From NCBI RefSeq assembly GCF_024298845.1, contig NZ_CP101156.1, forward strand, positions 3,038,001 to 3,102,000: a stretch of 64,000 nt of DNA, in the 5' to 3' direction. Below, piece by piece: positions 9,882-56,744 of this stretch (position 1 is the first letter of the stretch; every line of letters starts with the position of its first letter). The translations under genes and the position numbers were made by a program. This DNA is from Natronosalvus amylolyticus. GTDB lineage: Archaea; Halobacteriota; Halobacteria; Halobacteriales; Natrialbaceae. Under the pieces are notes generated by a model. That model was not told where the DNA came from, ran no database searches, and was given only the letters and a program-made list of their open reading frames with translations.

Positions 9882-9904
9882 AACGGGCACGATGGGATTC
9901 GAAC
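9882..9904. repeat. attL: Left attachment site: 23-bp copy of the tRNA-Arg 3' end
   Basis: These 23 bases are identical to 44056-44078, covering the discriminator, acceptor strand and T-arm of the intact tRNA-Arg(TCT) on the minus strand. Identity ends sharply at 9904. The integrase gene begins 165 bases inside. This is the standard signature of tyrosine-integrase insertion at a tRNA 3' end. Confidence 0.9.
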
Positions 9905-10069: not shown

Positions 10070-11062
10070 ATGCATACAAAGAAAGCAACGACCGTGTACC
10101 TAGACTATCGAGAGAGCGACTGTGCGCATCAAACAGTACAGAGCTACGAATATAGATTAAACAAATTTGAGGGCTGGTGGGGCGACCGGGACATAGGAGA
10201 GATGACGAAGCAAGATGTCCACGAGTGGAAACAACATCTCAATGACCAAGACTTAGCGAAGCCCACAATCAAGTCCCACATCGACACACTCCGTGGATTT
10301 CTGGCGTATATGGCTCGTCTCGACTACGTCGATGACGACCTCGTCGACGTAGCCGACTCTCCGACACTCTCAAAGGGCGATAACGTCCGAGATGACGAGG
10401 TCGAAGCCGACGTAGCGACCCAGATACTGCAGCGCCTCGATAGATTCGACTACGCTTCGATGCGTCACGCCCTAATTTTGCTCTTGTGGCGTACTTCGAT
10501 GAGAACTGGTGCCGTTCGAAGTTTGGATTTGGGCGACTACAATCCAAATGAACAATACCTACGCCTCGAACATCGCCCGGGTAGCGAGACACCTCTCAAA
10601 AATCAAGGCGAGGGAGAGCGGATGGTTGCAATCTCAGAAGAAACATGCCGGATACTCGACGACTATATCGCCGAGAAAAGAGTCGATATCGAAGATGAAC
10701 ACGGAAGAGAACCCTTGTTGACGACGAAACACGGAAGGATAGCACGGAACACAGTACGTAAATGGTGCTATCGACTCACTCGGCCATGTTGGTTCAGTGG
10801 TGAATGCCCACACGACCGGGAGCTAGACGAATGCCGAGGCAGTGTCGAGAGAAGCGACAACTACGCTTACGAATGCCCAGATTCAGTCGCTGCTCACGCC
10901 TTTCGGCGTGGTTCAATCACGCACTTTTTGAGAAACGATATGCCGGAGACCGTCGTCAGCGACCGGGCGAACGTCTCAACTGACGTGCTTGATAAGCACT
11001 ACGACCGTCGGAACGAGCGGGAGAAAATGGAGCAACGGAGAGTGTATTTGGACAACATCTAA
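10070..11062 (+). CDS. int: Tyrosine recombinase/integrase of the element
   Basis: 330 residues. The N-terminal SAM-like core-binding domain covers about residues 10-95. The catalytic domain shows Arg145 (in TSMRTGAVRS), the HAFR box (His276, Arg279) and the nucleophile Tyr311 in LDKHYDRR. Residues 240-269 form an insert with four cysteines (240, 246, 255, 269), common in haloarchaeal integrases and suggestive of a zinc knuckle. The second His/Trp position of the catalytic set is occupied by SDRA, as in many archaeal members. It lies next to attL and points inward, so it most likely catalyses tRNA-Arg integration and excision. Confidence 0.9.
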   Translation: MHTKKATTVYLDYRESDCAHQTVQSYEYRLNKFEGWWGDRDIGEMTKQDVHEWKQHLNDQDLAKPTIKSHIDTLRGFLAYMARLDYVDDDLVDVADSPTLSKGDNVRDDEVEADVATQILQRLDRFDYASMRHALILLLWRTSMRTGAVRSLDLGDYNPNEQYLRLEHRPGSETPLKNQGEGERMVAISEETCRILDDYIAEKRVDIEDEHGREPLLTTKHGRIARNTVRKWCYRLTRPCWFSGECPHDRELDECRGSVERSDNYAYECPDSVAAHAFRRGSITHFLRNDMPETVVSDRANVSTDVLDKHYDRRNEREKMEQRRVYLDNI

Positions 11063-19291: not shown

Positions 19292-20020
19292 TTAGGCGAC
19301 GACAGTCTCCTCTGACTCATCGTCTTCGTTAAGCAGGCCGTCAACATCATATCCGTATGCGAGTCCAAGTTCGATATATTCGTCCTGTCGGTCCATGATG
19401 TTCGCGATGGTTCCCTGTGCGATTCCCGTCTCTTCCTCCGTCTCTGAGTACGAATATCCCCGGGCTCGCATGCTGAGAACGCGAAGTACGGCGTCGAAAT
19501 TCTTGTCTGGGACGAGATACTGTCCATTCTCATCGAACTGTGTTCCTGTCGGCGGTCGTCCCTGATAGTAGCCGTTCTCAACACGCTGTTTGATTTTTCG
19601 TTTGGCCTTCTGGATATCTCTACGTTTGGCGACGTCGTCCATATAGTTTCGAATCATCTCGATGAGCCAGCTTTCGTCGTCGCCGAAATCGACGCGTTGT
19701 CCATCAGTGGTTGTCCACAACTCCACGTCCCACTCATCAAGGTCGTAGTAGAGCATCGACCGTTCCCGCTTGTCTCTCGATAACCGGTCACGGTCGCGGA
19801 CGATGAGAACGTCAATCTCCTCGTCTTCGAGGACGGCCTGCATTTCGAGGTATTGGTCACGCTCATTGTCGAACCCAGATGATTTCTGCCCGTCGTCAAA
19901 AATTTCAAGCAGTTTGAACCCCTGCTCGTCGGCGAGGTCCCGAATTTCTCGTTTCTGGTCCGGGATGCTGGTATCGCTCGTTTGGGAGAGCCGGGTGTAG
20001 CCGATGGCCGTCTTACTCAT
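19292..20020 (-). CDS. Serine recombinase (resolvase/invertase family)
   Basis: 242 residues from ATG at 20020. The N-terminal resolvase domain has GYTRLSQTSDTSIPDQKREI with catalytic Ser12, and RDRDRLSRDKRER, the conserved arginine cluster. A helical region (RRDIQKAKRKIKQRVENGYY) and a small C-terminal HTH (YSYSETEEETGIAQGTIANI) follow. Enzymes of this class use a Ser-DNA intermediate to invert or resolve DNA. Its start overlaps the AbrB-like gene's stop by 8 bases (ATGAGTAA), so the two are coupled. Candidate sites are the palindromes at 20263-20286 and 22317-22531; that link is inference. Confidence 0.85.
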   Translation of the reverse strand: MSKTAIGYTRLSQTSDTSIPDQKREIRDLADEQGFKLLEIFDDGQKSSGFDNERDQYLEMQAVLEDEEIDVLIVRDRDRLSRDKRERSMLYYDLDEWDVELWTTTDGQRVDFGDDESWLIEMIRNYMDDVAKRRDIQKAKRKIKQRVENGYYQGRPPTGTQFDENGQYLVPDKNFDAVLRVLSMRARGYSYSETEEETGIAQGTIANIMDRQDEYIELGLAYGYDVDGLLNEDDESEETVVA

Positions 20021-20213
20021 CGTCGTCACGCTCTTTCACGCTTACTCGGAGTGCGTCAGCACCTTTCACCTCCCAACTTATCTCGGCTCCCCCAAGTCGC
20101 ATGGCCTCAGCGATACTTTTCGGGACAGTCGTGCGATATTGTGTCACGGTTCGTTCTGAACCATCCTCATTTTCGACCGTATACTCGGTCACAGAAACAG
20201 TTGATTTAGCCAT
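20013..20213 (-). CDS. AbrB/MazE-like DNA-binding protein (SpoVT-AbrB fold)
   Basis: 66 residues. The core YRTTVPKSIAEAMRLGGAEI followed by SWEVKGADALRVSV is the swapped-hairpin AbrB pattern (T-V-P-K-x-I ... W-x-V). It lies directly before, and overlaps, the serine recombinase gene. It probably regulates this operon through the repeats immediately upstream. An antitoxin role is possible, but no toxin is adjacent. Confidence 0.7.
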   Translation of the reverse strand: MAKSTVSVTEYTVENEDGSERTVTQYRTTVPKSIAEAMRLGGAEISWEVKGADALRVSVKERDDDE

Positions 20214-22868: not shown

Positions 22869-24029
22869 ATGGATAGAAATGCAGTTCAGGAGTTTGTGAA
22901 GCAATCTGAAGCCGTCATGGACTCCTCTCCGCAGATGGATGAAGCCAACACGAAGGCCGCTGTTCTGCGCGAGTTCTTAGACCTTCTTGATTGGGAAATT
23001 CCGAAGAATACACAACTCGAATATCCCGTTGAAGCGTTCGGACGGACATACAAAGTCGATTACGCGCTCATTCTCGAAGGCACACCCGTCGCCTTTCTTG
23101 AAGCAAAAGGGGCTGACACTGCCCTGACTGCCGACCACGACGAACAATTGTCCTCCTATATGATGAACAAGAATGTCACCTATGGTATCCTCACGAACGG
23201 CAAGCAATATCGTTTCTTCCAACGGCGGGTGGACGCGTCCAACGTGGACGTACAGATGGTTGGTGACGTAGACCTCAGAAACCTGCCTAGCCGTCTCGCC
23301 GTCCTAAAGGCCTATGAGAGAGATGCTATCGAGTCGGGAGAGTCCGGAAAAATACTCGGTCGTATTAACGAGTTACGAGAAGCACGCCGGGTTCTTGAAG
23401 CCAAAAAGGATGATTTGGCTGTTGAACTCTCAAACGTGCTGGCCGACCGCGTTTCCGGTTCTATCTCATCACTCGCTGAAACACAAACAAAGGAGATGAT
23501 TGACAGGCTTGTCGCAGATATTGAATCCGAGATAGACGCTGACAGCGGTGGTATAGACGTCCTGATAGGTGGTGGCGGTAGTGGTGGTGTCGAACCCACA
23601 GATAATCACGTTGTCAGTCAAATCAAACGGACTAAAATTGAGGGTGGGGATGAGGCGAAAGTCGCTGTTTTCCCGACAAAGGAATCAGGTCTATCGTTCT
23701 TAAAGGAGAACAACGCATGGGGATTCGTTCGCATTGGGAGCGAGTTCGAATACGTGGCGATGTACGTGACCGGCGACGTGCGTCAGGTCAAATACTTCGC
23801 TACGGTCAAGGATGTTGTTCGCCCGGAGACAGCCGAATTATCTCGTCCCATCGAAGAATATGCTGACGGGGAGAAAATAGCGGAGGACAAGATGATTATT
23901 CGATTTAAGCCGGAAAGTCTGTATGAATTGGAAGACCCCATTCCTTACGAGACGAAATATCCGCAGAATCTTCGCTATTCCGCGCTCGGAGCACTTCGGA
24001 CAGCCGAAACGACCGACGACATGCTCTGA
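22869..24029 (+). CDS. HSDR_N-type PD-(D/E)xK nuclease protein
   Basis: 386 residues. The N-terminal domain matches the type I restriction subunit R N-terminus. Asp64 in YKVDYALI is followed by ExK (Glu78, Lys80) in VAFLEAKGAD, then DEQLSSYMMNKNVTYGILTN with the conserved Gln93. A long coiled-coil-prone region (about 155-230) and a Gly-rich linker (LIGGGGSGGV) precede a C-terminal beta-rich domain of unknown type. Unlike HsdR it has no helicase motor; the next gene, 129 bases on, supplies one. It is probably the DNA-cleaving part of a multi-gene defence system. Confidence 0.75.
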   Translation: MDRNAVQEFVKQSEAVMDSSPQMDEANTKAAVLREFLDLLDWEIPKNTQLEYPVEAFGRTYKVDYALILEGTPVAFLEAKGADTALTADHDEQLSSYMMNKNVTYGILTNGKQYRFFQRRVDASNVDVQMVGDVDLRNLPSRLAVLKAYERDAIESGESGKILGRINELREARRVLEAKKDDLAVELSNVLADRVSGSISSLAETQTKEMIDRLVADIESEIDADSGGIDVLIGGGGSGGVEPTDNHVVSQIKRTKIEGGDEAKVAVFPTKESGLSFLKENNAWGFVRIGSEFEYVAMYVTGDVRQVKYFATVKDVVRPETAELSRPIEEYADGEKIAEDKMIIRFKPESLYELEDPIPYETKYPQNLRYSALGALRTAETTDDML

Positions 24030-24158
24030 TTCGCGGTGTCCCTATAGCCATGTTATCCGTATTCGGGTACCTACCTTTCTGAGTTTGGTCTAACTGCGAA
24101 TCCCCAGATACTGCAGCGAAAGACTAAGTTGATTTGATGAGAATTCCAAGTATCCAGA

Positions 24159-27100
24159 ATGCTCTCCGTCCCCCCACTTGTCGATAACACGAATAAAAAT
24201 CTCGAAGAAGTCTACAAAAAAATTATTCCGAAAATCGAAGAGGCGCGAATCGCGACTGGCTACTTCTATCTCTCCGGTTTCGACCTCTACAAGGAGGACT
24301 TGGGCAATCTAGCCGACCCCGACGAACTCGGTCATGCACCGCTTCGCATTCTCATGGGCCGTCAGACCAACCAGCAGACCGCCGATGAAATCGAGGAGGG
24401 ACAGAACCTTCGGGAAGCGTTCAAACAGGAACTTAAGGACGACATCGAGAGTCTGAACAACGCGCAACTCGGACGACTCAACCGGCTTCGAGAGTTTGTC
24501 GCGGAGGGAATCGTTGAAGTCCGTGTTCGAAACCCCGAGAACGGGTATTTTCACGCGAAGGGGGCAGCGTTCCGCGCCCCACTTGAAGAGGATGAGGGCC
24601 CCCCGTCAGAGGACGAAGAGGATACACGTGCCTGCGCAACTATCGTCGGTTCCTCAAACTTCTCGGCAAGCGGCCATCGGAATAACATCGAACTCAACCT
24701 CACCAGCCAAGACCGCTACCAGACCCAAAAGTTCGAAGAGTGGTACGATAATCAGTGGGCGAACGCCGAGGAATTCTCCGAAGAAATCATCCGCATCATC
24801 GAGAACAGCGACCAGTACAAGGAGTGGAAGGAGAAGCAAGAAAAGAAAACGTCCGATGGTGGGCCTGACGACGAAGAACTCGGAACCTATCTCGAACCCT
24901 TCGAACTCTACAAACTCCTCGCATACGACGAACTCAGCGGCAACGTCAGTGCCCGAGACAGCCCGCTATACTATTTCCAGAAACTCGGCTACGAGAGCGC
25001 ACGTGAGAAACTTTCCCAGTACGACGGCTGTATCATCTCGGACTCTGTTGGGCTCGGGAAGTCGTTCATCGGTGGTGAACTCCTCTACGACTATCGACAG
25101 CGCGGTGACCGCTGTCTCCTCATCGTCCCCGCGAACCTGACTGACCAGTGGGAAGACCTTCTCCAAGATGGGACTGACGAGGACGGTAATCCCTACTTCG
25201 GGCTGGAGATGGACGGAACTCACCTCGACGTGATGAGCGTCAGTAAGTTCCAAAATCTCACCTACGAGGAGGTTCAAGAACTCCGCGACGACTTCGACGT
25301 GCTGCTCATCGACGAGGCCCACCGCTTCCGTAACTTTGGGAAGTGGCGACCGAACCCCGACCACGATGACGACTACAAGGGGACGCGGCGGCACGCGAAC
25401 CTCCGTCAGTTGCGTGGAAAAACGATGATTATGCTGACCGCGACGCCCATCAACAACAGCGCTACCGACCTGAAGAACCTCATCAGCCTGTTTACGAGCC
25501 CGGAGGAGATTCGCAACAAGGCCTCACTTGACTTCGACGCTTTCGACGAGTACATCGAACTCGCGGAGACGCGCAAGCGCATCGCCGCTGGCAAAGAGGA
25601 GGTCTCCGACGAGAAGCAGCAACAAATCACCGAGCAGTTGCAGCGCCAGTCGAAAGAAATCTCGAACATCCTCAACGAAGTAATGGTTCTGCGGACGCGC
25701 AAGCATGTCAAGGACCTGATTCGGGACGACGAGGACTTCGAGATGAGTTTCAAACCACCGAAACTCAACAAGGAACAGTACTCACTGCCGCCCGCCTACC
25801 AGCCAATCTACCGGATGCTCCCCGACGTAATGGACGCACTCCATCTCCCGCACATCACGGTGAAGAACCCGAAGGCAGGGAGTACACTCAAAGCCCTCTA
25901 CAAACTGAACCTCCTCAAGCGACTGGAATCCTCAACATACGCGTTCGTGCAGTCCATCGAAACATTGCACCAGAGTGAGCGGCGACTGCTCGGTCTGCTG
26001 GAGGACCTGCCTGAAGACGAAGACATCGAAATGCTCCGTGCGGTACAGGATGGAGAAGCCCCTGCAACCATCGACGACTTCGTTGAAGGGAAGGACGCCG
26101 CCGAAGACCTCGAACAGACGCTCGAAGAATTCGGCTTCGACTCGACCGCCGTGCGTGCTGATGAGGGTGAATCGGAGACGCAGGACGAACTGGTAGACGC
26201 GACTGTTGGGGAGGTCAAGACCTACATCCGCGAGGACCTGACGCTGCTCGCGCACTTCCTCACGCAGTTCATCGGGGATGTGGCACGGGACACTGGAGAC
26301 GTAAGTGACCACGCAGTCACGGTACGACAGTGGCTCCACGACCACAACGCGGGCACACTCCCCGACGTACCGGAGGAAGAGATGAATCCCATCCTGTACC
26401 CGAGGAGCGACCTGACGGAAGTAGACTCCGCGACTCGGGACTTCTACGAGGCTGTGTTCTCCCTGCGCGAGTTCCGCGACCCGAAAATCGACCGCCTCGC
26501 AAACGTCCTCCAGAGTCACGATAAGAAAGTCCTCATCTTTACCCAGTATCGAGGAACCGCCGACTACGTGTATCGGACGCTCCGCGACAACCCGGACTCA
26601 CCGTTGACGGCGGAGAACAGCGCGGTCGTGAAAGGCGGCGATGAGAACAAGCAAGACATCATTCAGCGGTTCGCGCCGCAAGCATCCGGGTATCAGAGTA
26701 CGCTCGCAGAGTCGGACGAAACTGAACTTCAGTACGTCGTCGCGACCGACACGCTCAGCGAGGGCGTAAACCTGCAGGACGTTCAAGTCGCAGTCAACTA
26801 CGACTTGCCGTGGAACCCAATGCGCATCGTCCAGCGCGTCGGTCGTATTGACCGCATCGGGAGTACGGCGGAGAAGCACGTCCACAACTTCTACCCCGAC
26901 GGGGACATCGAGGCGGCCATTAAGCTGCTGAAGCGACTGCAAGCGAAAATCAACGATATCGCGCTCATCGTCGGGAAGGAGAACAACATCCTCGACCCGA
27001 ACGAGGACCAGATTCTGGAGAAGGCGGGCGTCGAGACGCAGAAGACCATCGGGGAACTGGAGGTCGAGGAAATCGAGGACTCGCTACGGAAGTCTCGCGA

Positions 27101-27971
27101 GGTTTCTGACGTGAATGAACTTGACGACACCTCGAAAAACCCGCTCCTGCGAAATGCTGGGAGTAATGAAGAGGCCGCGTACGACCGCTTCCTGCTCAAA
27201 CGCGAGTTAAACGAGGAGTACGGGCTCACGACTGACGACTTTGAGTACGCTGAGGATTTTTTCGACGACCCACCAGACGAGCGGGAGTTCCTCTACACGA
27301 ACGCCATCAACCACGACAAGGGACCGCGCCCCGGTTTGTTCGGGCTCGCACACCTCTGGTTCGACAATGAAGACGAGAACGCTCCGCTCGGACGGGTACG
27401 TCGGGCGTTCTACTACAAGCCGTTTAGCGATGACGTGAAAGAACGGTCCGTGCAAACGCTCTCAATCAGCCCATCTGTCGAGGGTGAGCCGGTTTCGGGG
27501 AATACCGACCACGTGCTGACGAACCGCGAAGAGATTGAGGAGGTACTCGACGACCGGCTCGAAGCGATACGTGAAGGACAGGTTGAGGGTGCGTTCAAGC
27601 AGGGCGATTCCTATTCAAAGGAGCAGGAGACGATTCTAGACTTCATCTCATACTACATCCAGCCGAACTTCGGGGACGACCCCTGCTCACACGAGGAATA
27701 TGAGACGATAGGTGAGTGGGCGGACGACCTTCACAGTCGGCTGAAGAACGTGAAACTCGGGAACACCGACGAGGACAGGATTCTCCGGGAGACGTTCCGG
27801 CACCACAAGGAGTACGAATCGTTCCCGGACTGGCCGCCCATCGAGTTCCTCGAAACGCTTGAAGTCTTCCTCGGGGAGAACATCGAAGCGTCTACCGAGT
27901 ATCAGGAGACGTTAGTCGGTGAGAGTAAGGTACACGCAGACCTTATCTGCTGGGGTATTATCGGGTCTTGA
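24159..27971 (+). CDS. PLD-nuclease / SF2 (SNF2-like) helicase fusion
   Basis: 1,270 residues. The N-terminal phospholipase-D-like domain shows the HxK motif (His132, Lys134, in GYFHAKGAAF) followed by VGSSNFSASGHRNN (about 163-176). The helicase core has Walker A VGLGKS (297-302), DEAH at 385-388, motif III ATPINNS and a C-terminal lobe with VATDTLSEGVNLQDV and QRVGRIDRIG (near 893). Long helical and C-terminal regions follow. This type is known from DISARM-like and other restriction systems, where the helicase tracks along DNA and the PLD domain may cut it. It ends 7 bases from the convergent methylase gene. Confidence 0.85.
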   Translation: MLSVPPLVDNTNKNLEEVYKKIIPKIEEARIATGYFYLSGFDLYKEDLGNLADPDELGHAPLRILMGRQTNQQTADEIEEGQNLREAFKQELKDDIESLNNAQLGRLNRLREFVAEGIVEVRVRNPENGYFHAKGAAFRAPLEEDEGPPSEDEEDTRACATIVGSSNFSASGHRNNIELNLTSQDRYQTQKFEEWYDNQWANAEEFSEEIIRIIENSDQYKEWKEKQEKKTSDGGPDDEELGTYLEPFELYKLLAYDELSGNVSARDSPLYYFQKLGYESAREKLSQYDGCIISDSVGLGKSFIGGELLYDYRQRGDRCLLIVPANLTDQWEDLLQDGTDEDGNPYFGLEMDGTHLDVMSVSKFQNLTYEEVQELRDDFDVLLIDEAHRFRNFGKWRPNPDHDDDYKGTRRHANLRQLRGKTMIMLTATPINNSATDLKNLISLFTSPEEIRNKASLDFDAFDEYIELAETRKRIAAGKEEVSDEKQQQITEQLQRQSKEISNILNEVMVLRTRKHVKDLIRDDEDFEMSFKPPKLNKEQYSLPPAYQPIYRMLPDVMDALHLPHITVKNPKAGSTLKALYKLNLLKRLESSTYAFVQSIETLHQSERRLLGLLEDLPEDEDIEMLRAVQDGEAPATIDDFVEGKDAAEDLEQTLEEFGFDSTAVRADEGESETQDELVDATVGEVKTYIREDLTLLAHFLTQFIGDVARDTGDVSDHAVTVRQWLHDHNAGTLPDVPEEEMNPILYPRSDLTEVDSATRDFYEAVFSLREFRDPKIDRLANVLQSHDKKVLIFTQYRGTADYVYRTLRDNPDSPLTAENSAVVKGGDENKQDIIQRFAPQASGYQSTLAESDETELQYVVATDTLSEGVNLQDVQVAVNYDLPWNPMRIVQRVGRIDRIGSTAEKHVHNFYPDGDIEAAIKLLKRLQAKINDIALIVGKENNILDPNEDQILEKAGVETQKTIGELEVEEIEDSLRKSREVSDVNELDDTSKNPLLRNAGSNEEAAYDRFLLKRELNEEYGLTTDDFEYAEDFFDDPPDEREFLYTNAINHDKGPRPGLFGLAHLWFDNEDENAPLGRVRRAFYYKPFSDDVKERSVQTLSISPSVEGEPVSGNTDHVLTNREEIEEVLDDRLEAIREGQVEGAFKQGDSYSKEQETILDFISYYIQPNFGDDPCSHEEYETIGEWADDLHSRLKNVKLGNTDEDRILRETFRHHKEYESFPDWPPIEFLETLEVFLGENIEASTEYQETLVGESKVHADLICWGIIGS

Positions 27972-27978
27972 TTAGAAC

Positions 27979-30900
27979 TTACTGTTGATGACTATCTTCA
28001 CTAAGTTGGTGGAACTTCTCAGAGACTAATTCAAAGTACTCATCATCCATAAACCGAGGATTGCTCACTTGATAGAAGTCGTTTAGGATAAATCCCACAT
28101 CTCCTTGGTTGAAACCGTAGGCATGGAAGGCTGCGGCATCCAGTTCTGCCTGAACATGACGACGCTCTTGCTTCGTTTTTACGGGTTCTGGATTTCCAAT
28201 TTTTCTCCGAATGTCAGCAAACTCTTCTCCATATGCATTTAACCGGGCTGCTCTAGACGAGATATATTCAAACCAGTCGTCTCCCTGTGTAAGACGGGGA
28301 ATTTGCGATTCCTCAATAGTATTCACGCTCATAGTTGTATCAAACTTTGTCCGGACAATATAATCAAAGGGAATACTGTTTAGAAGACCGAGTGCAAGGA
28401 ATAACTCTTCACCCGTGAAAATTGGGTCATACACGTCATGGAGAGTCTCCTTTGCAAGGTCTTCCCGCTCAGGATTAATCTCATATGGTCGAATGGTGGG
28501 ACATTTGTTGTGGCAGATTGCCCCTCTCGGGAGTGCTGCTGCGACCATACTCCGTTCGTTCGTACTATTCGACACATCACGGAATCCGATACGGTGAGAC
28601 GTACAGTCCAATAGTACGTCTTCCAGTTTTAGAGGGTCACCTCTATGGGTTTCGAGCAAATCGTTCACGAATCCGATTTGGGAACCACTTCCATCAAACG
28701 CTTCGTAAATCTCTTTCTTCAGTCTCTTCTGGTTTTTCTCTCTAATCCTCCTTTTGGCACTCTTTTTTGGGTTAGACTCTTCATCAACACTCCAATATTC
28801 AAATTCTTCAAGGTCCTCAATTTCATTATTGTAGGCAAATAGCCAAATATTCTTACCACCGTAGACAGGGTAATCCCCGTCTTCTTTCTCTTCAACGAAG
28901 TATTCCGTGTCTCGCGTACGGTGAAGTTCCTCACCGTATATGTTGATGTACCACTTCTCCTCCCTCTTTTCGCTAACTGGTGGATACTGGACAACCTTAT
29001 TGAGGACAGACACTTCTGACTGGTTTGTGATTTGAGGGAATATGGTCGTGACTGGTGAATACTTCTTTAGAATTTCTGCCGGAACATCTAGTAAGTTCTC
29101 TTTATTCCGTAGTATTTCTAAATCTCTCTGGAGGAATTTGGTATTAATGTGATTAGTTGTGCCAGAGTTCTTGAACGAGACTATCCCAAACTTGTATTGG
29201 TTGTGAATGTCGTCAAAGATTCCTTTATTCTCGAATCCGATGAGGTAGTCAAGTCTCACATCAGACAGTAAGTAATTACGTAAGTCGCTAGAAGAAGTAC
29301 CGATGAAGAGTTTCCCGGGTAAAACGAACGAAGTATAACCTTGCGTGCTTGCAAGGTCAAAAGACCGTTCTAAAAACAGCATCGACAGGTCTGTCGTACC
29401 TTGTCCTCCGACCTCGGGGCTCTGCAAGTTGTAGGCTGGGTTTTCCCCGTAGAATTTTCGGAGACGGTCGATATTATCCTTGTATTCTTCCCAACCTTCC
29501 GCAATTTCGTCATCCTCGCATAATTCTTCAATCCGTGCCTCCTTCTCATTCGCACTCAGCGATTTAAACCTCGGTTCGTACTGCCCGAAGTAGTCATTCC
29601 GGTCAGGAGTAAGAGCCCGCCACGGTGGATTTCCGAGAACAATGTCAAATCCACCATCCCGATAAACGGGGGCAAATTCGAGTACCCAATGGAATGGTGA
29701 GAAGGACCGAATATCCTCTATTGTCACGGCCTCTACACCGGAACTATGAAAGTCTCGAAGAGTTTTATTATTCAATTCGTCGCGGTATGATTTAATTCTG
29801 GATTCAGCGACCTTTCGCGCGTTTGCTACCTCCTCTGCTGTCGTCGCATCCCTATGTCGCTCAATCGCTTTGATAACGTCCTCGTAGAATTCTTTAACAC
29901 CGGTACCAGTCCCACCACCCCAATTGTTCAATGAGGCGTCGCCATCGTCATTTGTTTCGACTAATTGAGTATATCCGATGAGCGAGTTCCCCTGTCGAAT
30001 GTTGAAGTCGATGTTGGGGAGCGGTTCAACCTCGCCGGGCTCGTCCTCGATGTCTGCGACCATCGAAAGCCACAGCCGTAGTTTACAGATTTCGACCGCT
30101 CCTTCGTCGATGTCCACCCCGTAGAGGTTGTTCAGGATGATTGTGCGCTTCGCATACAGCGATGCGTTCCCCTTCCCAGACGCGATAGTGTCCAATTCGT
30201 CACGCGTTTGCGAGGAGAGTTCCCATCCCTTCCCCTCGTCTTCGAGGCGCTGAAAGAACTCGATACACTGCATATAGAGGTCGAGCAGCACCTCCTGTCC
30301 GGCGAGGAGGAACGCCCCACTACCGACTGCAGGGTCAAGGAGTTTTGCTTCCTTCAGGATGTCGTGGTAGAGCGTCTCGACGTGCCCAACATCGACGTTC
30401 TCGGTCGGAGCCTGATGAGTGACCATTCCTCCGTCAGCGATGGCTGTCGTATCAGCACTCGCGCTAGCCTCAGGGAAGCCGAATACATCGTCGATTTCGT
30501 CGTAAAATGCTCCAACGGTCTCGTTCAGTTGGTCGAGGAGGTAGGGATGGACCGTCCGACGAGCCATGAAGCCCGTAATTTCCTCGGGCGTGTAGTACGC
30601 GCCCATCTCCTTCTGGTTGACTGTCTGCTCGAAGATGTGCCCGAGGACAGCTGGGGAGAGGTTCTTCGGGTCGACGATGTCGAGCCGTTCGTCAACGTTC
30701 CAGTTCCAGTCGGAGAGAAAGTCGAGAATATCGTCGTACAGTTCGTTCGTCTCTTTAGCGGAGTTGCCCAGTTTCGCGTCTTCGAACTCCTCCTCAATGG
30801 GGTTCTTCGCGAACAGACCACCGTTCAGGTATGGGAGTTTGCCGAAGTCCGGGTTCTGCTTGTCCTCCGCGAGGTAGTCGAAGAACAGCGGCGCGTAGAA

Positions 30901-31578
30901 CTCCTCGTAGCGGTCCTCGCCATCGTCCACAACCTCAGCAGGCTGCTCGTGAAGATAGTCTGGGTTCCGGTCGAGCAGACGTTTCTCTTGGATGAAGTAG
31001 AGGAAAATCATTCGGTCGAGAATGACCTGAACGTACCGCTGCTTCGCGTCACCTCGGTCGTCGGGGATGCCGGAGACCTCCTGCACAAGGTCGGTGCGCA
31101 GGCTCTCGAACTGCTGGTAGAACTCCTTGACGACCTGCCGGGTGTCGTAGAGCGTGTCGTAGATGGCCGCGGACGAACCGTACTCGATGGAGTTCAGTTT
31201 CTGCAGGATAGTGTTCTTCTCGCCGCTCTCAGAGCGAAATTGCTCCTTGTTAAACGAGAGTTTCTGATGCTTGATTCGACCGTGCTGTTGGCCTTCCCAA
31301 CTGCGGACGCGCGTGATGAAGGTGAAGCCCTCGTAGTCGTTGGTGGCGACAAGGTTCGTGTGACGCGTGCGATTTTGTGGCTTGAAGTCGGTCGCTGACT
31401 CGCCGGGTCCGGCCTCAACGATGGTGACGAACTCGTCATCTGCGAGTTGGAGAACGAGTTCGTGGTCTTCCCCAAGGTTCGGTCGTGGTTTGAGCCCGCG
31501 TTTCTCAAATGAATCTGCGATGTCCTGTAGAGAGTCCCAGCCCGCAATGTCAGACGCCGTAATTTGCTGGAGAGCCAT
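27979..31578 (-). CDS. Eco57I/PglX-like adenine-specific DNA methyltransferase
   Basis: 1,199 residues. Motif I is LLDPAVGSGAFLL (about residue 414) and motif IV is the N6-adenine signature GNPPW (about 649). Between them are DIDEGAVEICKLRLWLSMVA and an Asn-rich segment. The C-terminal ~350 residues resemble the target-recognition part of type IIG enzymes. The N-terminus is acidic; no clear nuclease motif was seen there, so cleavage probably rests with the neighbouring PLD and HSDR_N proteins. It is convergent with the helicase and divergent from the DUF262 gene (109-base gap). It probably methylates host DNA to mark self. Confidence 0.85.
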   Translation of the reverse strand: MALQQITASDIAGWDSLQDIADSFEKRGLKPRPNLGEDHELVLQLADDEFVTIVEAGPGESATDFKPQNRTRHTNLVATNDYEGFTFITRVRSWEGQQHGRIKHQKLSFNKEQFRSESGEKNTILQKLNSIEYGSSAAIYDTLYDTRQVVKEFYQQFESLRTDLVQEVSGIPDDRGDAKQRYVQVILDRMIFLYFIQEKRLLDRNPDYLHEQPAEVVDDGEDRYEEFYAPLFFDYLAEDKQNPDFGKLPYLNGGLFAKNPIEEEFEDAKLGNSAKETNELYDDILDFLSDWNWNVDERLDIVDPKNLSPAVLGHIFEQTVNQKEMGAYYTPEEITGFMARRTVHPYLLDQLNETVGAFYDEIDDVFGFPEASASADTTAIADGGMVTHQAPTENVDVGHVETLYHDILKEAKLLDPAVGSGAFLLAGQEVLLDLYMQCIEFFQRLEDEGKGWELSSQTRDELDTIASGKGNASLYAKRTIILNNLYGVDIDEGAVEICKLRLWLSMVADIEDEPGEVEPLPNIDFNIRQGNSLIGYTQLVETNDDGDASLNNWGGGTGTGVKEFYEDVIKAIERHRDATTAEEVANARKVAESRIKSYRDELNNKTLRDFHSSGVEAVTIEDIRSFSPFHWVLEFAPVYRDGGFDIVLGNPPWRALTPDRNDYFGQYEPRFKSLSANEKEARIEELCEDDEIAEGWEEYKDNIDRLRKFYGENPAYNLQSPEVGGQGTTDLSMLFLERSFDLASTQGYTSFVLPGKLFIGTSSSDLRNYLLSDVRLDYLIGFENKGIFDDIHNQYKFGIVSFKNSGTTNHINTKFLQRDLEILRNKENLLDVPAEILKKYSPVTTIFPQITNQSEVSVLNKVVQYPPVSEKREEKWYINIYGEELHRTRDTEYFVEEKEDGDYPVYGGKNIWLFAYNNEIEDLEEFEYWSVDEESNPKKSAKRRIREKNQKRLKKEIYEAFDGSGSQIGFVNDLLETHRGDPLKLEDVLLDCTSHRIGFRDVSNSTNERSMVAAALPRGAICHNKCPTIRPYEINPEREDLAKETLHDVYDPIFTGEELFLALGLLNSIPFDYIVRTKFDTTMSVNTIEESQIPRLTQGDDWFEYISSRAARLNAYGEEFADIRRKIGNPEPVKTKQERRHVQAELDAAAFHAYGFNQGDVGFILNDFYQVSNPRFMDDEYFELVSEKFHQLSEDSHQQ

Positions 31579-31687
31579 ACGCAGGGCAAGTAACTCACAT
31601 CATATCAATGTATGGCAAATCAACATCAAGAAGAATCTAACAGTAGACCCACATCACTATAATGTCGCAATATAATGTTTCGAGAGA

Positions 31688-33457
31688 ATGAGTGCAAGTC
31701 AGATTGACGCAAAGGAAGAGTTTCTGAGCAAACTCTACGACGACTACCACTACAAGATTCCTAAGTTCCAACGCCCGTTTTCGTGGACTGAGGAACATTT
31801 CGTGGACCTCATCGACGACCTTACTGATGCATACGATGTCGGGCGAGATGCTCACGGGACGCTGCTCGACGAAACAGGCGAACTAAAGAAGCAGACTCTC
31901 GATGCGTACGAGCCCTATTTCCTCGGGAGCATCATCCTGAACGATGGGAGTGACTCCGGTGAACGCTCTGACATCATCGACGGACAACAACGATTGACCT
32001 CCCTCGCGATTCTGATTGCCGTTCTGAGAGACTTAGTAAATGATGAACCACGAGCGAATTCGCTCGGCGGACTCATTTACGAAGAGAGCGACCCAATTAA
32101 GGGGAAATCAGAGACGGTACGGCTCGAAATTCGAGAACGCGACCGCGACTTCTTTGACAAGCACATTCTCACCCGGGGAGCGACCGAGGACGCCCCCGAC
32201 CCTTCAACGGGTGACAGCGAACCCAAGCAGAATATCCTGCAGGCCATTCAAACCTTCCGGGAGGAACTGGCCGAATGGCAAGACGAAGAATACGGCGACC
32301 TCGGTGACTTCGCGACCTATCTCACACTCCGCGTCGTGATGGTTCGCATCTCGACGAACTCACTAAGTTCTGCATTCCGGCTGTTCAACGTCACAAATGC
32401 GCGAGGGATGCCGCTTAACAATGCTGACCTGCTGAAGTCGGAGAACCTGAGCCACATTGACGATGACGACAAGCGGGAGGAATACCAGCGAAAGTGGGAG
32501 GATATGGAAGAAGAGGTGGGGAACGAGGGGCTGGAGCGGTTTATCGGTTTCATGCGCCATATCATCGTGAAGGAAAAGTCTCAGAAATCGGTCTACGACG
32601 AGTTCAAAGACCGCGTGTTCCCCGAAGATAACACGTTCAGGGGTGAGAGGTTCGTCGATTATCTAGAGACTGTCTTCGATGTCCATCGACATCGTATCTA
32701 TAATGCAGAGTTAGATGCTGCCTCCTACGCGGAGGAGGTCTACTACCACAATTTGGTTTCTCTGATGCGTGACTTCTATCCTTCCGATGAATGGATGGTC
32801 GCACTCATCCAATTCGATGCGAAATTCGACGATGACTCTACTCTGTTGTCGTTTGTTGAGCAACTGGAGCGCCGACTCACTGTTGACTGGCTCACGGGCT
32901 CGTCGAACACAGGTCGGTATAGTCGTGTATACTCACTTCTCCGCGAAATTGAGGAGGCCAGTACGCCAGAAGACGTTCTCAATCTCCCGATGCTCAACGA
33001 GAAAATCGTGGAGGAGAGCGAGGCGTTCGAGAACGCACTTGACCTCAGTAACTTCTACCGGAAAGGGAACTATCAGTGGCCGAAGTACATCCTCATGCGG
33101 ATTAACGGTGAGCGATTCGACAATCGTAACTCGAAGGTGGAGTACGGCAATAACGTCACTATCGAACATATTCTCCCCCAGACGCCAAACAACGACTATT
33201 GGCTGATTAGATTCGACGATGAGCACTGGCGGGACACGTGGACTGACCGTATGGGGAACCTCGTACCTCTCGACGGGCGGAAAAACTACAAGGTGAGTAA
33301 CAAGCCCTTCACCGCGAAGTATGAGGAGTACTTCAAGAAGAAGAGTGACTTCCCGCTCGTCAATGAACTCGAAGAGTACGATGAGTGGACACCCGAAAAT
33401 CTCCGGGAACGGCACGAACGCCTAAAACAGGAAGCTAAGGAAATCTGGCTTTCATAA
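31688..33457 (+). CDS. DUF262-DUF1524 fusion (GmrSD-like restriction protein)
   Basis: 589 residues. The N-terminal DUF262 (GmrS) domain has IPKFQRPFSWTEEHF and the nucleotide-binding signature DGQQRLTS (98-105). The C-terminal DUF1524 (GmrD) domain has the His-Me/HNH-like NVTIEHILPQTPN followed by DRMGNLVPLDGRKNYKVSN. Known members (GmrSD, BrxU, SspE) are NTP-driven nucleases that attack modified or foreign DNA. It shares an upstream region with the divergent methylase gene. It may be part of the same system or an independent type IV enzyme. Confidence 0.85.
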   Translation: MSASQIDAKEEFLSKLYDDYHYKIPKFQRPFSWTEEHFVDLIDDLTDAYDVGRDAHGTLLDETGELKKQTLDAYEPYFLGSIILNDGSDSGERSDIIDGQQRLTSLAILIAVLRDLVNDEPRANSLGGLIYEESDPIKGKSETVRLEIRERDRDFFDKHILTRGATEDAPDPSTGDSEPKQNILQAIQTFREELAEWQDEEYGDLGDFATYLTLRVVMVRISTNSLSSAFRLFNVTNARGMPLNNADLLKSENLSHIDDDDKREEYQRKWEDMEEEVGNEGLERFIGFMRHIIVKEKSQKSVYDEFKDRVFPEDNTFRGERFVDYLETVFDVHRHRIYNAELDAASYAEEVYYHNLVSLMRDFYPSDEWMVALIQFDAKFDDDSTLLSFVEQLERRLTVDWLTGSSNTGRYSRVYSLLREIEEASTPEDVLNLPMLNEKIVEESEAFENALDLSNFYRKGNYQWPKYILMRINGERFDNRNSKVEYGNNVTIEHILPQTPNNDYWLIRFDDEHWRDTWTDRMGNLVPLDGRKNYKVSNKPFTAKYEEYFKKKSDFPLVNELEEYDEWTPENLRERHERLKQEAKEIWLS

Positions 33458-39505: not shown

Positions 39506-39750
39506 GTGAAAATTTCACCCTCCAAGTCCACGACCGACGAGACCTCCGACGAGCACTCGACCGACTCTCACTCGAGCACGATGACCTCTGGGACGCCGAC
39601 TCGTGTGACATTGGCGAAGCAATCGTGCGATTAGCGCTGGATAACCCCGACCTGCTGCTCCAAAAGCTCGGCCAAGTGGCTGGCGAAAATAATTCAGCCG
39701 TATTAGAGGGGTCGGATGCTCACTTACCAACAGGTGATAGCAATGAGTGA
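39502..39750 (+). CDS. Small acidic helical protein, 82 residues
   Basis: The frame reads MSENFTLQVHDRRDLRRALD, then EAIVRLALDNPDLLLQKLGQ. A strand followed by helices is compatible with a ribbon-helix-helix fold. Its end overlaps the recombinase start by 8 bases (ATGAGTGA), so it is probably a partner or regulator of that recombinase. Confidence 0.5.
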   Translation: MSENFTLQVHDRRDLRRALDRLSLEHDDLWDADSCDIGEAIVRLALDNPDLLLQKLGQVAGENNSAVLEGSDAHLPTGDSNE

Positions 39751-40363
39751 AACCGTCGTACACCGTCACTTTACGTTGGCACAGATAGACGACCTGCGAG
39801 ACGCTGCGCATAGTCGAGACGCACGCTATGATTCGTCGCTGCGGGATGAGGTCTATGTAGTACTCTCAACCGACCTTGGAACCCGGGTAGGCGAGACCGT
39901 CCCACTGACTCACCAAATGTTTGACCTCGAAAACGGGGAAGTAACGCTTCCTGCTGGAATCCAGAAGGACTATCCAGTAGACGGTAAGTCGCCAAAGGCT
40001 GCGACGCTCCGACTGGACCCGTACGGCCACTTCGGGACGGTCAGACTGCTCAGAGTGTACTTCAAAGAGCTTGAGGACGATGGTCACGACTACCTGTTTC
40101 CGAGCAGGCAGAGCGACCACATGTCGACGGAGGCCGCTCGAGACATCGTGCGTAGGTTAGCTGTCGAAGCCGACGTTTCGCCCCGGAGAACAGACGGACA
40201 GCCTGCCGACCCGTCAGAAGCGCATCCACACGCATTCCGGCACTCACTCGCCAACTACATGCTGGCGGACGAGTCCACACGATTAGTCGACGTGCGCAAC
40301 AGACTCCGTCACCGCAGCATCACGACGACCGAACGAGTCTATGAGCACTTCCAACGCCGATAA
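39743..40363 (+). CDS. Tyrosine recombinase, catalytic domain only (206 residues)
   Basis: The catalytic set is visible: Arg48 (LGTRVGE), His163 and Arg166 (HAFRHSLA), His190 (RLRHRSITTT) and Tyr200 (ERVYEHFQRR). The usual N-terminal core-binding domain is missing, as in short plasmid and viral recombinases. It is translationally coupled to the 82-residue protein. The last codons, including the tyrosine, are repeated at 42390-42437, so the 3' end of this gene may itself have served as a recombination site. Confidence 0.85.
   Translation: MSETVVHRHFTLAQIDDLRDAAHSRDARYDSSLRDEVYVVLSTDLGTRVGETVPLTHQMFDLENGEVTLPAGIQKDYPVDGKSPKAATLRLDPYGHFGTVRLLRVYFKELEDDGHDYLFPSRQSDHMSTEAARDIVRRLAVEADVSPRRTDGQPADPSEAHPHAFRHSLANYMLADESTRLVDVRNRLRHRSITTTERVYEHFQRR
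40332..40353. repeat. 22-bp repeat inside the recombinase 3' end (left copy)
   Basis: AACGAGTCTATGAGCACTTCCA-type sequence covering the catalytic Tyr200 codon. It matches 42406-42427 with a single base difference. The two direct copies bracket 2.05 kb containing the Mrr cassette. Confidence 0.7.
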
Positions 40364-40399
40364 TTCTATTTATCTACAGTTAGAGTATTCGACAACTCA

Positions 40400-41044
40400 A
40401 TGAGCCTGAGTCTGTTCCAAGCAGTATCTCTAACTATTGCTGGCGTTTCTGTTGTAATTTCGTATATCAAATACCGGGAATATAAATACGAAAAGCAACG
40501 GGACATCTACCAATCCATCGTTGGCAATGAATATGAGTTCGAAATCACAGGTGAGGATGAAACCAACTGCTTCGAGGTCGTGAACATCGATGTGAAGAGT
40601 GGCCGTCGTCCGTGGAAGTGGCATACACTGGTTGTAATTGAATTTGATATCGAGGAATTCCCGTGGGATTCTCGTGATGATGATGTCGCTAATGATGCGG
40701 CTAAAGACCTCGCATGGACGTTCAACCTGCTAACAAAGGAAACACCAGAGATACGAGGGGCCGAACTATTTGAATCCTACAAAGCACCTGCTCTAACAGT
40801 CGTCTTTCCATCTACCGATTTATTCGCTATAACCGATTTTTTGCGGAAAACACAGACAACTATAGGTCACGTGTTCTGGCATTACGAAAGCGACGAAATG
40901 GCTGAGATGCCGATGAGACTTCATGCCCATTATTTGGAGGAACACTTGGAGTTGCTTCTACAAAACACCGACTCTGACCGTGAGGATTCAATGACCACAC
41001 CTGTTTCATGGGTGGAAAATATAATGAGACACCATACAATATAG
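40400..41044 (+). CDS. Membrane-anchored hypothetical protein, 214 residues
   Basis: One N-terminal transmembrane helix (LFQAVSLTIAGVSVVISYI) is followed by a basic KYREYKYEKQR stop-transfer and a soluble acidic domain. No catalytic motif was seen. Its stop lies 23 bases before the Mrr-type nuclease gene, so the two probably act together; the first gene may anchor or sense. Confidence 0.5.
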   Translation: MSLSLFQAVSLTIAGVSVVISYIKYREYKYEKQRDIYQSIVGNEYEFEITGEDETNCFEVVNIDVKSGRRPWKWHTLVVIEFDIEEFPWDSRDDDVANDAAKDLAWTFNLLTKETPEIRGAELFESYKAPALTVVFPSTDLFAITDFLRKTQTTIGHVFWHYESDEMAEMPMRLHAHYLEEHLELLLQNTDSDREDSMTTPVSWVENIMRHHTI

Positions 41045-41066
41045 GTAAAGAGTACATCCAATTTTC

Positions 41067-41984
41067 ATGAATTTAGAGAATATTCAGTGGAGAGAGTTTG
41101 AAGAGTTAATTGCCGTTTTGTGGGAGAAATTTGGCTACAAAACTAGGATTACGCCGCCCGGAAGGGACGGAGGGATAGATGTCATTGCCGAGCGGAGCGT
41201 GCCATATCAAGAAAGAATATTAATTCAGGTAAAGAACTACTCAATTGATAATAAGATTGGGGTGAAATTCGTACGAGAATATAGTTCGCTTCTTCATCGA
41301 CCAAATGTTGATGGAGTTGTCATTGTGACTACTGGATTCTTCACTAAGCAAGCACGGGATGAAGCCAGAGAGATTGGGGTAAAATTAGTTGACCGCAGCG
41401 AGATTGAACGATTTATTGATGAGCATATATCTGAACTCCAACTATCAAAATTCACCCGAGAGCCAAATGGTTACAAAGGCGTGAACGATGCTGCTGAACT
41501 TGAAACATCTGAGAAGCCGACCGAGGTAGACCGGGAATCATCGAATTCAGAAAGTAGGACATTATCAGGGTATGATAGAGACAACGACTTCCCAAAAATA
41601 GCAGAAGACGACCCGGTACCTGATGTAACGGTACCCACATTTATTCGTGATGGGATTAGAGAACACCTTCTCAGCAACTCCCAGTACATGAATGCATTCT
41701 CGGGAAATGATAAAAACCCAATCTACCAATATATCTCGACTATACATCAGATTCCTATTAGTGGCCAAGTTAACCGAGACGCTATCATGGAAATTTGTGA
41801 TAAGTACAATCTTCAATACATAGACAATTCAGAACAGAACATTGCCGTGAGATGGGAAAAGTATTGGAATGATTCTACACTAAACGTCAATTTAGAACAT
41901 GATTCGATGATTGCTACCAAGTTTATTAATGAGATTTGCGAAAAATTGGATAATGTGGAATTAAAACAAACACCATCTGAATAG
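41067..41984 (+). CDS. Mrr-type restriction endonuclease
   Basis: 305 residues. The N-terminal Mrr-cat domain has WREFEELIAVLWEKFGYKT, then GGIDVIAE (Asp38), and ILIQVKNY with the Q-x-K pair (Gln54, Lys56). This is the PD-(D/E)xK variant of type IV enzymes that cut methylated DNA. VDGVVIVTTGFFTKQARDEA follows. The C-terminal ~150 residues are unknown and may be target-sensing. If the methylase upstream modifies host DNA, this enzyme would need a different specificity. Confidence 0.8.
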   Translation: MNLENIQWREFEELIAVLWEKFGYKTRITPPGRDGGIDVIAERSVPYQERILIQVKNYSIDNKIGVKFVREYSSLLHRPNVDGVVIVTTGFFTKQARDEAREIGVKLVDRSEIERFIDEHISELQLSKFTREPNGYKGVNDAAELETSEKPTEVDRESSNSESRTLSGYDRDNDFPKIAEDDPVPDVTVPTFIRDGIREHLLSNSQYMNAFSGNDKNPIYQYISTIHQIPISGQVNRDAIMEICDKYNLQYIDNSEQNIAVRWEKYWNDSTLNVNLEHDSMIATKFINEICEKLDNVELKQTPSE

Positions 41985-43963: not shown

Positions 43964-44059
43964 CCGTGATGCGGGATAACGATATCACCACGGTTCGAGA
44001 GTAAAATTCAGACCGAACCCCGAGCCCTCTGTGATACCTGACCGTGATGCGGAGTAACG
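43964..44059. repeat. 18-bp direct repeat next to the right attachment site
   Basis: CCGTGATGCGG followed by GATAACG at 43964-43981 recurs as CCGTGATGCGG followed by AGTAACG at 44042-44059 (16 of 18 identical). The second copy runs into the tRNA end. Such repeats beside an att core are candidates for integrase arm sites. Confidence 0.45.
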
Positions 44060-44078
44060 GGCACGATGGGATTCGAAC
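44056..44078. repeat. attR: Right attachment site: 23-bp repeat in the tRNA-Arg gene
   Basis: Identical to 9882-9904. It covers the 3' end of the intact tRNA-Arg(TCT), which the integrated DNA abuts. Confidence 0.9.
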
Positions 44079-44132
44079 CCACGACCGTCGGATTAGAAGT
44101 CCGACGCTCTATCCAGACTGAGCTACGTGCCC
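44058..44132 (-). tRNA. tRNA-Arg (anticodon TCT)
   Basis: 75 nt, minus strand. The acceptor pairs GGGCACG with CGTGCCC. D-arm GCTC...GAGC, anticodon stem TCGGA/TCCGA with loop CTTCTAA (anticodon TCT), and T-arm GTGGG-TTCGAAT-CCCAT are all present. The discriminator is G and CCA is not encoded. No intron. Its 3' end is the element's integration target. Confidence 0.95.
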
Positions 44133-56445: not shown

Positions 56446-56744
56446 CTCGAGCACTGAGTGATCGGACGGGAGGTGCTCGCTCGAGGAAGCAAACGGTCTG
56501 GCCGAGAAACCGGTGTTCGTCGGCCTCGACGAACCCGGTGAGCCGGGGAAAGGTTGGGGCCCCGGCACAGTCACCGCGAGGGAGCGACGCGACCGAGCGG
56601 GCCGACGAACGACCGTCGGGAGTGAGGAGTGCTTTTGGTCCAGCTTTTGCCGAGCGTCGGGCTGTCGTGCAGCAGCTCGCTGCTGTCGACAGCCCCGAGC
56701 GCAGGGCAAAAGGTGGGGGTTCTAGTCCATCGCGATGTACGTTT
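56446..56744. repeat. Left arm of a ~299-bp inverted repeat around trkA
   Basis: Near-identical in reverse complement to 58051-58347, with a few substitutions and small indels. It starts with the last codons of the E1-alpha gene (CTCGAGCACTGAG) and ends with the last codons of the flanking Lrp-like gene. It contains an internal hairpin (GGGCTGTCG...CGACAGCCC) that may terminate transcription. Confidence 0.85.

What the first reader, a model, noticed from the sequence alone, without database searches (positions are those of the whole stretch)
22869..33457. Unassigned restriction-like system: HSDR_N nuclease, PLD-helicase, Eco57I-type methylase, GmrSD-like protein
Four large adjacent genes divide the jobs of a restriction enzyme. 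They are a stand-alone PD-(D/E)xK HSDR_N protein, a PLD-SF2 helicase, an adenine methylase lacking its own visible nuclease, and a DUF262-DUF1524 nuclease. The methylase and helicase are convergent 7 bases apart. No BREX pglZ/brxC and no DISARM drmB (DUF1998) is present, so it fits neither known layout.
Basis: partly seen in the sequence, partly recalled or inferred. Interest (0 to 1): 0.75.

Follow-up and report, generated by a model that had tools for sequence, protein, structure and literature searches.

The report
Two-gene archaeal restriction module, sometimes switchable
Two of the four genes, a nuclease-helicase and a DNA-marking enzyme, form a widespread two-gene restriction-like module carried here on an inserted element; in close relatives a DNA segment flips so that the marking enzyme changes its predicted target-recognition half, a reversible switch that I found described for no archaeon.

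Summary
The PLD-SNF2 helicase (24159-27971) and the adenine methylase (27979-31578) are a tight pair: 49 of 50 haloarchaeal helicase loci have this methylase next door (the 50th contig ends), convergent in all but three. Distant two-gene pairs sit on plasmids of Lactococcus, Enterococcus, Lactiplantibacillus and others. HSDR_N is mostly a solitary gene (beside the pair in 4 of 50 loci). GmrSD recurs at none of the 54 sampled haloarchaeal neighbourhoods. The module rides a 34-kb element (9882-44078) inserted in tRNA-Arg; a congener has the empty site. DUF499 is absent, PglZ has no hit above cut-off, and DUF1998 proteins lie elsewhere in the genome.

Most likely the methylase reads and marks a site and the helicase, holding the pair's only invariant nuclease motif, attacks unmarked DNA (inferred). 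In sister lineages the methylase's first ~435 codons with its upstream region lie between inverted repeats and flip between two different C-terminal halves, beside a dedicated tyrosine recombinase (12/12 two-cassette loci; no single-cassette locus). The Halorussus vallis plasmid record contains both orientations of one locus. The window's copy has one cassette and is not switchable.

The parts
24159..27971 (+). Core gene 1: PLD-SNF2 helicase (1270 aa). N-terminal PLD nuclease domain, SNF2/RapA-like translocase core.
   Evidence: Pfam. Across 34 archaeal and bacterial relatives the PLD residues H132, K134, G164, S165, N167, N176, E178 and helicase motifs GxGK 298-301, DExH 385-388, ATP 428-430 and QRxGRxxR 892-899 are invariant. 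RapA is the best sequence hit among solved structures.
27979..31578 (-). Core gene 2: adenine-specific DNA methylase (1199 aa), BrxX/PglX-MmeI-like, with its own C-terminal target-recognition region and no nuclease.
   Evidence: Pfam Eco57I. Motif I D415-F423 and motif IV N650-P652 invariant. Predicted structure (pLDDT 80.7) is nearest BrxX/PglX, CamA and MmeI, though overall TM-scores are low (0.34-0.40 to BrxX/PglX). Beside the helicase in 49 of 50 haloarchaeal loci.
27972..27978 (.). 7-bp gap between the convergent stop ends of helicase and methylase
22869..24029 (+). HSDR_N (PD-(D/E)xK) protein: occasional companion, not core
   Evidence: Pfam. Sequence keeps D...E-A-K and a downstream Q..Y. 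Homologues in 104 of 391 genomes, beside the helicase/methylase pair in only 4.
31688..33457 (+). GmrSD-like (DUF262-DUF1524) predicted type IV nuclease: neighbour, probably independent
   Evidence: Pfam; no P0004 relative in 54 haloarchaeal neighbourhoods; a different DUF262 protein lies inside the Deinococcus version.
30233..30273 (-). Place in the methylase that corresponds to the inversion site of the switch-bearing relatives (codes MQCIEFFQRLEDEG); here unpaired, 10 of 41 bases differ
9882..9904 (+). attL: 23-bp direct repeat AACGGGCACGATGGGATTCGAAC
44056..44078 (+). attR: the same 23 bp at the 3' end of tRNA-Arg (44058-44132, -)
   Evidence: congener G253 has the uninterrupted site (95% over 225 bp)
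10070..11062 (+). Tyrosine integrase of the 34-kb element that carries the module
   Evidence: PF00589 plus SAM-like N-terminal domain

Best explanation
A two-gene, translocase-coupled restriction-modification module on an integrative element. The methylase (PglX/MmeI-like, with its own recognition region) methylates adenine at one target and provides self/non-self recognition. The PLD-SNF2 helicase is the restriction effector: it engages DNA whose target lacks the methyl group, translocates, and cuts with its PLD domain. Shown here: intact and invariant catalytic motifs in both proteins, near-obligate genetic linkage, rapid divergence of the methylase's C-terminal half, and mobility. Inferred: the coupling, the cleavage and antiviral function. 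In related lineages the same module carries a specificity switch. A tyrosine recombinase gene (its role inferred from perfect association) sits beside two inward-facing C-terminal halves, and a 1467-bp segment with the upstream region and N-terminal methylase part (motif I) flips between them, so that the active enzyme alternates between two recognition regions. The inversion itself is shown by sequence; the change of target is inferred. The window's copy is a single-cassette, non-switching form.
For: Linkage: helicase at >=59% identity at 50 loci in a 391-genome sample of the class; methylase beside it wherever the contig reaches far enough, convergent except L069-L071. Distant (~27%) methylase+helicase pairs in Lactococcus, Enterococcus, Lactiplantibacillus, Deinococcus, Planktothrix; convergent pair on Haloquadratum walsbyi PL47. 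Catalysis: PLD and helicase motifs invariant in 34 sequences; methylase motifs I and IV invariant; fold nearest BrxX and MmeI. Specificity: between the window and Halovivax KZCA124, methylase residues 1-550 are 82-98% identical per block and residues 551-1150 only 36-62%, although the helicases are 94% identical. Switch: opposed cassettes; L086 and L087 identical over >15 kb apart from the inverted segment; Halorussus vallis NZ_CP100003.1 positions 1-46183 repeat 121286-167465 at 99.95-99.99% with that segment inverted; repeats 38-80 bp exact inside 76-89% flanks; recombinase (PF00589) at 12/12 two-cassette loci and at no single-cassette locus. Mobility: att repeats and empty site.
Against: No methylome, cleavage or infection data. 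Convergent genes cannot be one operon, so co-regulation is unproven. The helicase model is poor (pLDDT 63.6), so the PLD-to-motor arrangement and any methylase-binding surface are not seen. About half of the genomes with a relative of this methylase lack the helicase, so related methylases can act alone. The duplicated stretch of the H. vallis record could in principle be a real 46-kb duplication rather than an untrimmed circular overlap; the inversion stands either way. The recombinase's role rests on association alone.
Confidence: 0.72

Rival explanations
1. A four-gene system: the HSDR_N protein is the main nuclease, the helicase the motor, the methylase the marker, and GmrSD a backup against modified DNA.
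For: The genes are adjacent, and HSDR_N lies directly upstream of and codirectional with the helicase in three loci (window, L204/G219, L205/G275) and beyond the methylase in a fourth (L072). HSDR_N keeps its catalytic residues. A DUF262 gene lies between methylase and helicase in Deinococcus radiophilus.
Against: 46 of 50 helicase/methylase loci lack HSDR_N; HSDR_N occurs without the pair in most of its 104 genomes, sometimes with its own small neighbours. No relative of the window's GmrSD in 54 neighbourhoods. The helicase already carries an invariant nuclease motif.
Confidence: 0.08
2. Epigenetic regulator or plasmid-maintenance device rather than antiviral defence: the methylase is the business end and the helicase-nuclease serves only to punish loss of the methylase.
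For: Orphan relatives of the methylase are common without the helicase, and an archaeal survey lists a BREX-like orphan methylase (HG5, CTGGAG m6A) persistent in Haloterrigena (PMC10609329). Many copies are on plasmids. The switch changes recognition halves, as phasevarions do.
Against: The nuclease and helicase motifs are invariant over archaea and bacteria, and the helicase is much better conserved than the methylase's recognition half, as expected for an effector shared among specificities.
Confidence: 0.1
3. A degenerate BREX, BREX-related or DISARM locus that lost its other genes.
For: The methylase fold is nearest BrxX/PglX; the helicase scores against DrmD and BrxH profiles.
Against: Scores are far below family cut-offs (DrmD 140 of 610 bits, PglX 66 of 500); no DUF499, no PglZ over its cut-off, no DUF1998 nearby. 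The two-gene form is stable over archaea and bacteria, including an 11.8-kb Lactiplantibacillus plasmid with little else.
Confidence: 0.05
4. The inverted arrangement in relatives is an assembly artefact or homologous-recombination noise rather than a switch.
For: Many short-read contigs end inside this region (L197, L204, L205, L213, L214), and G375 (L091) shows an odd 3.1-kb palindrome.
Against: Finished plasmids show both orders. In most genomes the two repeat copies match each other although repeats differ between genomes; identity is exact for only 38-80 bp and falls to 76-89% beyond; a dedicated recombinase is present at every two-cassette locus.
Confidence: 0.04

Closest known systems
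BREX methylase PglX/BrxX (PDB 8c45, 9ewz) and BREX-like orphan archaeal methylases (HG5 in PMC10609329)
   Same: Nearest solved fold; adenine methylase with N-terminal helical region, C-terminal recognition region, no nuclease. Inversion of pglX in Lactobacillus BREX is recalled from memory; not tested here.
   Different: No PglZ over cut-off, no DUF499 in the genome; NCBIfam PglX score 66 against a cut-off of 500 bits.
DISARM class 1 (DrmD helicase + DrmMI methylase)
   Same: SNF2 helicase next to an adenine methylase.
   Different: No DrmA/DrmB/DrmC beside it; DrmD score 140 against 610 bits; the PLD domain is fused to the helicase instead of being a separate DrmC.
BREX-related DUF499 systems (PMC12839542)
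   Same: N6-methylase plus SNF2 helicase-nuclease acting as an RM-like unit.
   Different: DUF499 ATPase absent; the nuclease is an N-terminal PLD, not a C-terminal PD-(D/E)xK; no DUF1156 match in the methylase.
Type ISP (LlaGI/LlaBIII) and type IIL/IIG (MmeI, DrdV)
   Same: Methylase with its own recognition region; in type ISP coupled to a translocating SF2 motor and a nuclease.
   Different: The functions are on two proteins, with a PLD nuclease and no PD-(D/E)xK; the methylase lacks MmeI's nuclease.
Phase-variable type I RM (SpnD39III/cod locus, hsdS inversions by PsrA; PMC4948785)
   Same: Inversion between short repeats beside a tyrosine recombinase swaps the recognition region.
   Different: In the relatives the flipped piece is the upstream region plus N-terminal catalytic half of the methylase, which chooses between two fixed C-terminal halves; archaeal; PLD-helicase partner.
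NCBIfam NF042964 PLD anti-phage protein / PADLOC HKD+Snf2 (PDLC01075)
   Same: Same domain order, PLD then SNF2 (PADLOC 272 bits, E 3e-81).
   Different: NCBIfam score 144 against an equivalog cut-off of 1100 bits; the methylase partner is not part of that definition as given.

Membership tests
BREX | PglZ | tested here: not met
   No match over cut-off in the whole genome; one sub-threshold hit (22.4 of 25 bits) in a gene at window ~50.9 kb, outside the element
BREX | BrxC/DUF499-type ATPase beside the methylase | tested here: not met
   DUF499 absent from the genome; no BrxC profile hit among the neighbouring proteins scanned
BREX | PglX/BrxX methylase | tested here: inconclusive
   Fold nearest BrxX, but profile score far below cut-off
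DISARM | DrmB (DUF1998) and DrmA beside the methylase | tested here: not met
   DUF1998/MZB hits lie on another contig or 1.7 Mb away
BREX-related (DUF499) systems | DUF499 ATPase | tested here: not met
Type IIG/IIL | Nuclease and methylase in one polypeptide | tested here: not met
   No PD-(D/E)xK pattern among conserved positions of the methylase N-terminus
Type ISP | Nuclease, SF2 motor, methylase and recognition domain in one chain | tested here: not met
   Two separate genes
Type IV GmrSD | GmrSD_N plus GmrSD_C in one protein (gene 31688-33457 only) | tested here: met
   130 and 91 bits, both over cut-off
Two-gene PLD-SNF2 helicase + PglX/MmeI-like methylase pair | Adjacent genes with both catalytic motif sets intact | tested here: met
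Inversion-switched methylase (as in haloarchaeal relatives) | Opposed second cassette, inverted repeats and recombinase | tested here: not met
   Met in 12 relatives but not in the window: one methylase copy and no recombinase match at E<=1e-30 in the genome
Restriction-modification in general | Site-specific methylation and cleavage of unmethylated DNA | not testable with these tools
   needs methylome and biochemistry

The most novel reading that the evidence does not exclude
The haloarchaeal family is an archaeal phasevarion-like bet-hedging RM system: a dedicated tyrosine recombinase flips the upstream region and N-terminal half of the methylase between two recognition halves, so that members of one population carry different methylomes and different virus and plasmid barriers, with the PLD-helicase serving both specificities. 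The window's copy is a single-cassette form that changes target only by replacement of its C-terminal half.
Probability: 0.5. Interest if true: 0.75.

Novelty: new variant of a known kind. Interest (0 to 1): 0.58.

Why it matters
It defines a minimal two-gene helicase-plus-methylase restriction-like module spread over archaea and bacteria that matches no single system at its cut-off in the profile libraries searched here. It also points to an inversion-switched specificity system in archaea, testable at once by long-read sequencing of named strains (Halorussus vallis XZYJT10, Halobaculum saliterrae WSA2, Halorubrum salipaludis WN019). My searches of an open-access library found inversion-switched methylase specificity described only for bacteria; most subscription papers are not in that library.

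Tried and rejected
Four-gene unit: rejected from the distribution data. BREX, DISARM and DUF499 systems: rejected by missing genes and low scores. A nuclease hidden in the methylase N-terminus: no conserved PD-(D/E)xK pattern. Switch in the window itself: one methylase copy, no opposed cassette, no close recombinase; the 215-aa tyrosine recombinase at 39716-40363 is 8 kb away and was not matched by the switch recombinase at E<=1e-30. Helicase structure: model too poor to interpret. IMG/VR viral contigs: no match with the patterns used. Serine resolvase at 19292-20029: relatives occur in some neighbourhoods but it is not a recurrent partner of the switch.

Full report
What is there. The four genes are real and at the stated places, including the 7-bp gap between the convergent helicase and methylase. 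They sit on a low-G+C stretch (45-58% against about 60-66% outside) that is an integrative element. A 23-bp repeat of the tRNA-Arg 3' end stands at 9882-9904 and 44056-44078, a tyrosine integrase lies just inside the left copy, and a congener (G253) has the uninterrupted site at 95% identity over 225 bp.

Which genes belong together. In a 391-genome sample of the class, the helicase occurs at 50 loci at 59-100% identity. I fetched their surroundings. The methylase lies beside the helicase at 49 of them; the 50th contig stops about 1.4 kb after the helicase. The genes converge everywhere except three loci with the order methylase-helicase-methylase, all codirectional (L069-L071). More distant helicases (26-37% identity) pair with a methylase in codirectional two-gene arrangements, in haloarchaea (L075-L085) and on bacterial plasmids of Lactococcus, Enterococcus and Lactiplantibacillus; Deinococcus, Planktothrix and Thermococcus have a few genes between. 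Haloquadratum walsbyi plasmid PL47 has the convergent form. HSDR_N has homologues in 104 of 391 genomes but stands beside the pair in only four (window, G219, G275, G037); its closest relatives elsewhere (about 83%) are in genomes without the helicase, or on another contig, partly with their own small neighbours. No relative of the window's GmrSD was found in 54 neighbourhoods. DUF262 proteins of other kinds do occur near some relatives, so a loose association of this nuclease class with the module remains possible.

Catalytic state. The helicase's PLD residues (H132, K134, S165, N167, N176, E178) and its motor motifs are invariant over 34 archaeal and bacterial sequences. The methylase keeps motif I (D415-F423) and NPPW (650-653), and its N-terminus shows no nuclease motif. 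Its predicted structure (pLDDT 80.7) is nearest BrxX/PglX, CamA and MmeI, with modest overall TM-scores. The invariant PLD site is therefore the only nuclease common to the pair, which makes the helicase the likely restriction effector. That coupling is inference.

Specificity region. Between the window and Halovivax sp. KZCA124 the helicases are 94% identical and methylase residues 1-550 are 82-98% identical per 50-residue block, while residues 551-1150 drop to 36-62%. The C-terminal half appears to be exchanged as a unit even in non-switching forms.

The switch in relatives. In two lineages of the helicase tree the methylase locus reads: helicase>, <C-terminal half A, [N-terminal segment], C-terminal half B>, <tyrosine recombinase. 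The first ~433 codons and about 160 bp upstream lie between inverted repeats placed inside the coding sequence just after motif I (lineage I) or at YGVDIDxGAVEICKLRLW (lineage II). Cassettes A and B are about 34-76% identical per block beyond the repeat. Motif I is in the flipping part and motif IV plus the recognition region are in the fixed halves, so the idle half should be inactive (inference). Both orientations are seen. L086 and L087 are identical over more than 15 kb except for an inverted 1467-bp segment; Halorubrum salipaludis and H. salinarum differ in the same way at 98-99.7% identity outside the segment. L086 and L087 come from the two ends of one plasmid record, Halorussus vallis NZ_CP100003.1: positions 1-46183 equal 121286-167465 at 99.95-99.99%, replication genes included. 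The simplest reading is an untrimmed circular overlap in which the same locus was assembled in both orientations from one culture. In most genomes the two repeat copies match each other although they vary between genomes, and exact identity covers 38-80 bp while the flanks are 76-89% identical, which favours site-specific exchange. The recombinase (PF00589) is present at all 12 completely visible two-cassette loci and at no single-cassette locus. The window and its nearest relatives (L196, L032-L035) form a separate clade with single cassettes, and the own genome has one methylase copy and no close recombinase.

What it is not. PglZ (no hit over cut-off), DUF499 (no hit) and DUF1998 (only far away) exclude BREX, the DUF499-centred BREX-related systems of PMC12839542, and DISARM as intact systems. 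Helicase and methylase score far below the NCBIfam cut-offs for DrmD, PglX and the PLD anti-phage protein. Orphan relatives of the methylase without the helicase are common; a published survey lists a BREX-like orphan methylase with CTGGAG m6A in Haloterrigena (PMC10609329), and whether it is one of these was not tested.

Literature. Four searches aimed at invertible or phase-variable methylases and term searches inside the archaeal recombinase review (PMC8371274), the archaeal RM surveys (PMC10609329, PMC6471742) and a 2026 methyltransferase review (PMC13076061) gave no description of an inversion-switched methylase in archaea. The library holds only open-licence papers. Inversion of pglX in Lactobacillus BREX is known to me from memory and was not checked.

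Verdict. The window holds a non-switching member of a two-gene module that is not a named system in the profile libraries searched. The more surprising result lies outside the window, in the switch of its sister lineages.

Noticed in passing
L032:5526-6140 (-) and equivalents in L033, L035, L044, L049, L072: A TBP-family (TATA-binding protein) gene, median 187 aa, in six helicase/methylase loci; where inspected (L032) it lies between helicase and methylase.
   Followed up: partly
L066:12908-13942 (-) and equivalents in L058, L059, L061-L065: A 344-aa protein with a NucS C-terminal nuclease match lies between helicase and methylase in a cluster of loci: a second kind of insert at the same place.
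   Followed up: partly
window 56446-56751 and 58044-58347: A 306-bp inverted repeat at 97% identity about 1.3 kb apart, outside the element.
   Followed up: no
L091 (G375, Natrinema sp. DC36 plasmid): A 3.1-kb palindrome at the switch region with two broken N-terminal segments; either an aberrant recombination product or an assembly mixture.
   Followed up: no
L187, L188, L193: Relatives of the switch recombinase (65-70%) sit beside other large methylases, so recombinase-methylase pairing is wider than this module.
   Followed up: partly
window 39716-41984: A second tyrosine recombinase (215 aa) and an Mrr-type nuclease near the right end of the element.
   Followed up: no
L222 (Lactiplantibacillus plantarum, 11.8-kb plasmid): The bacterial helicase-methylase pair is followed, after a small toxin-antitoxin pair, by a site-specific integrase; possible switching there was not examined.
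   Followed up: no
NZ_CP100003.1 (Halorussus vallis plasmid unnamed3; L223, L224): The 'complete' circular record carries the same ~46 kb at both ends, so the true plasmid is probably about 121 kb.
   Followed up: yes
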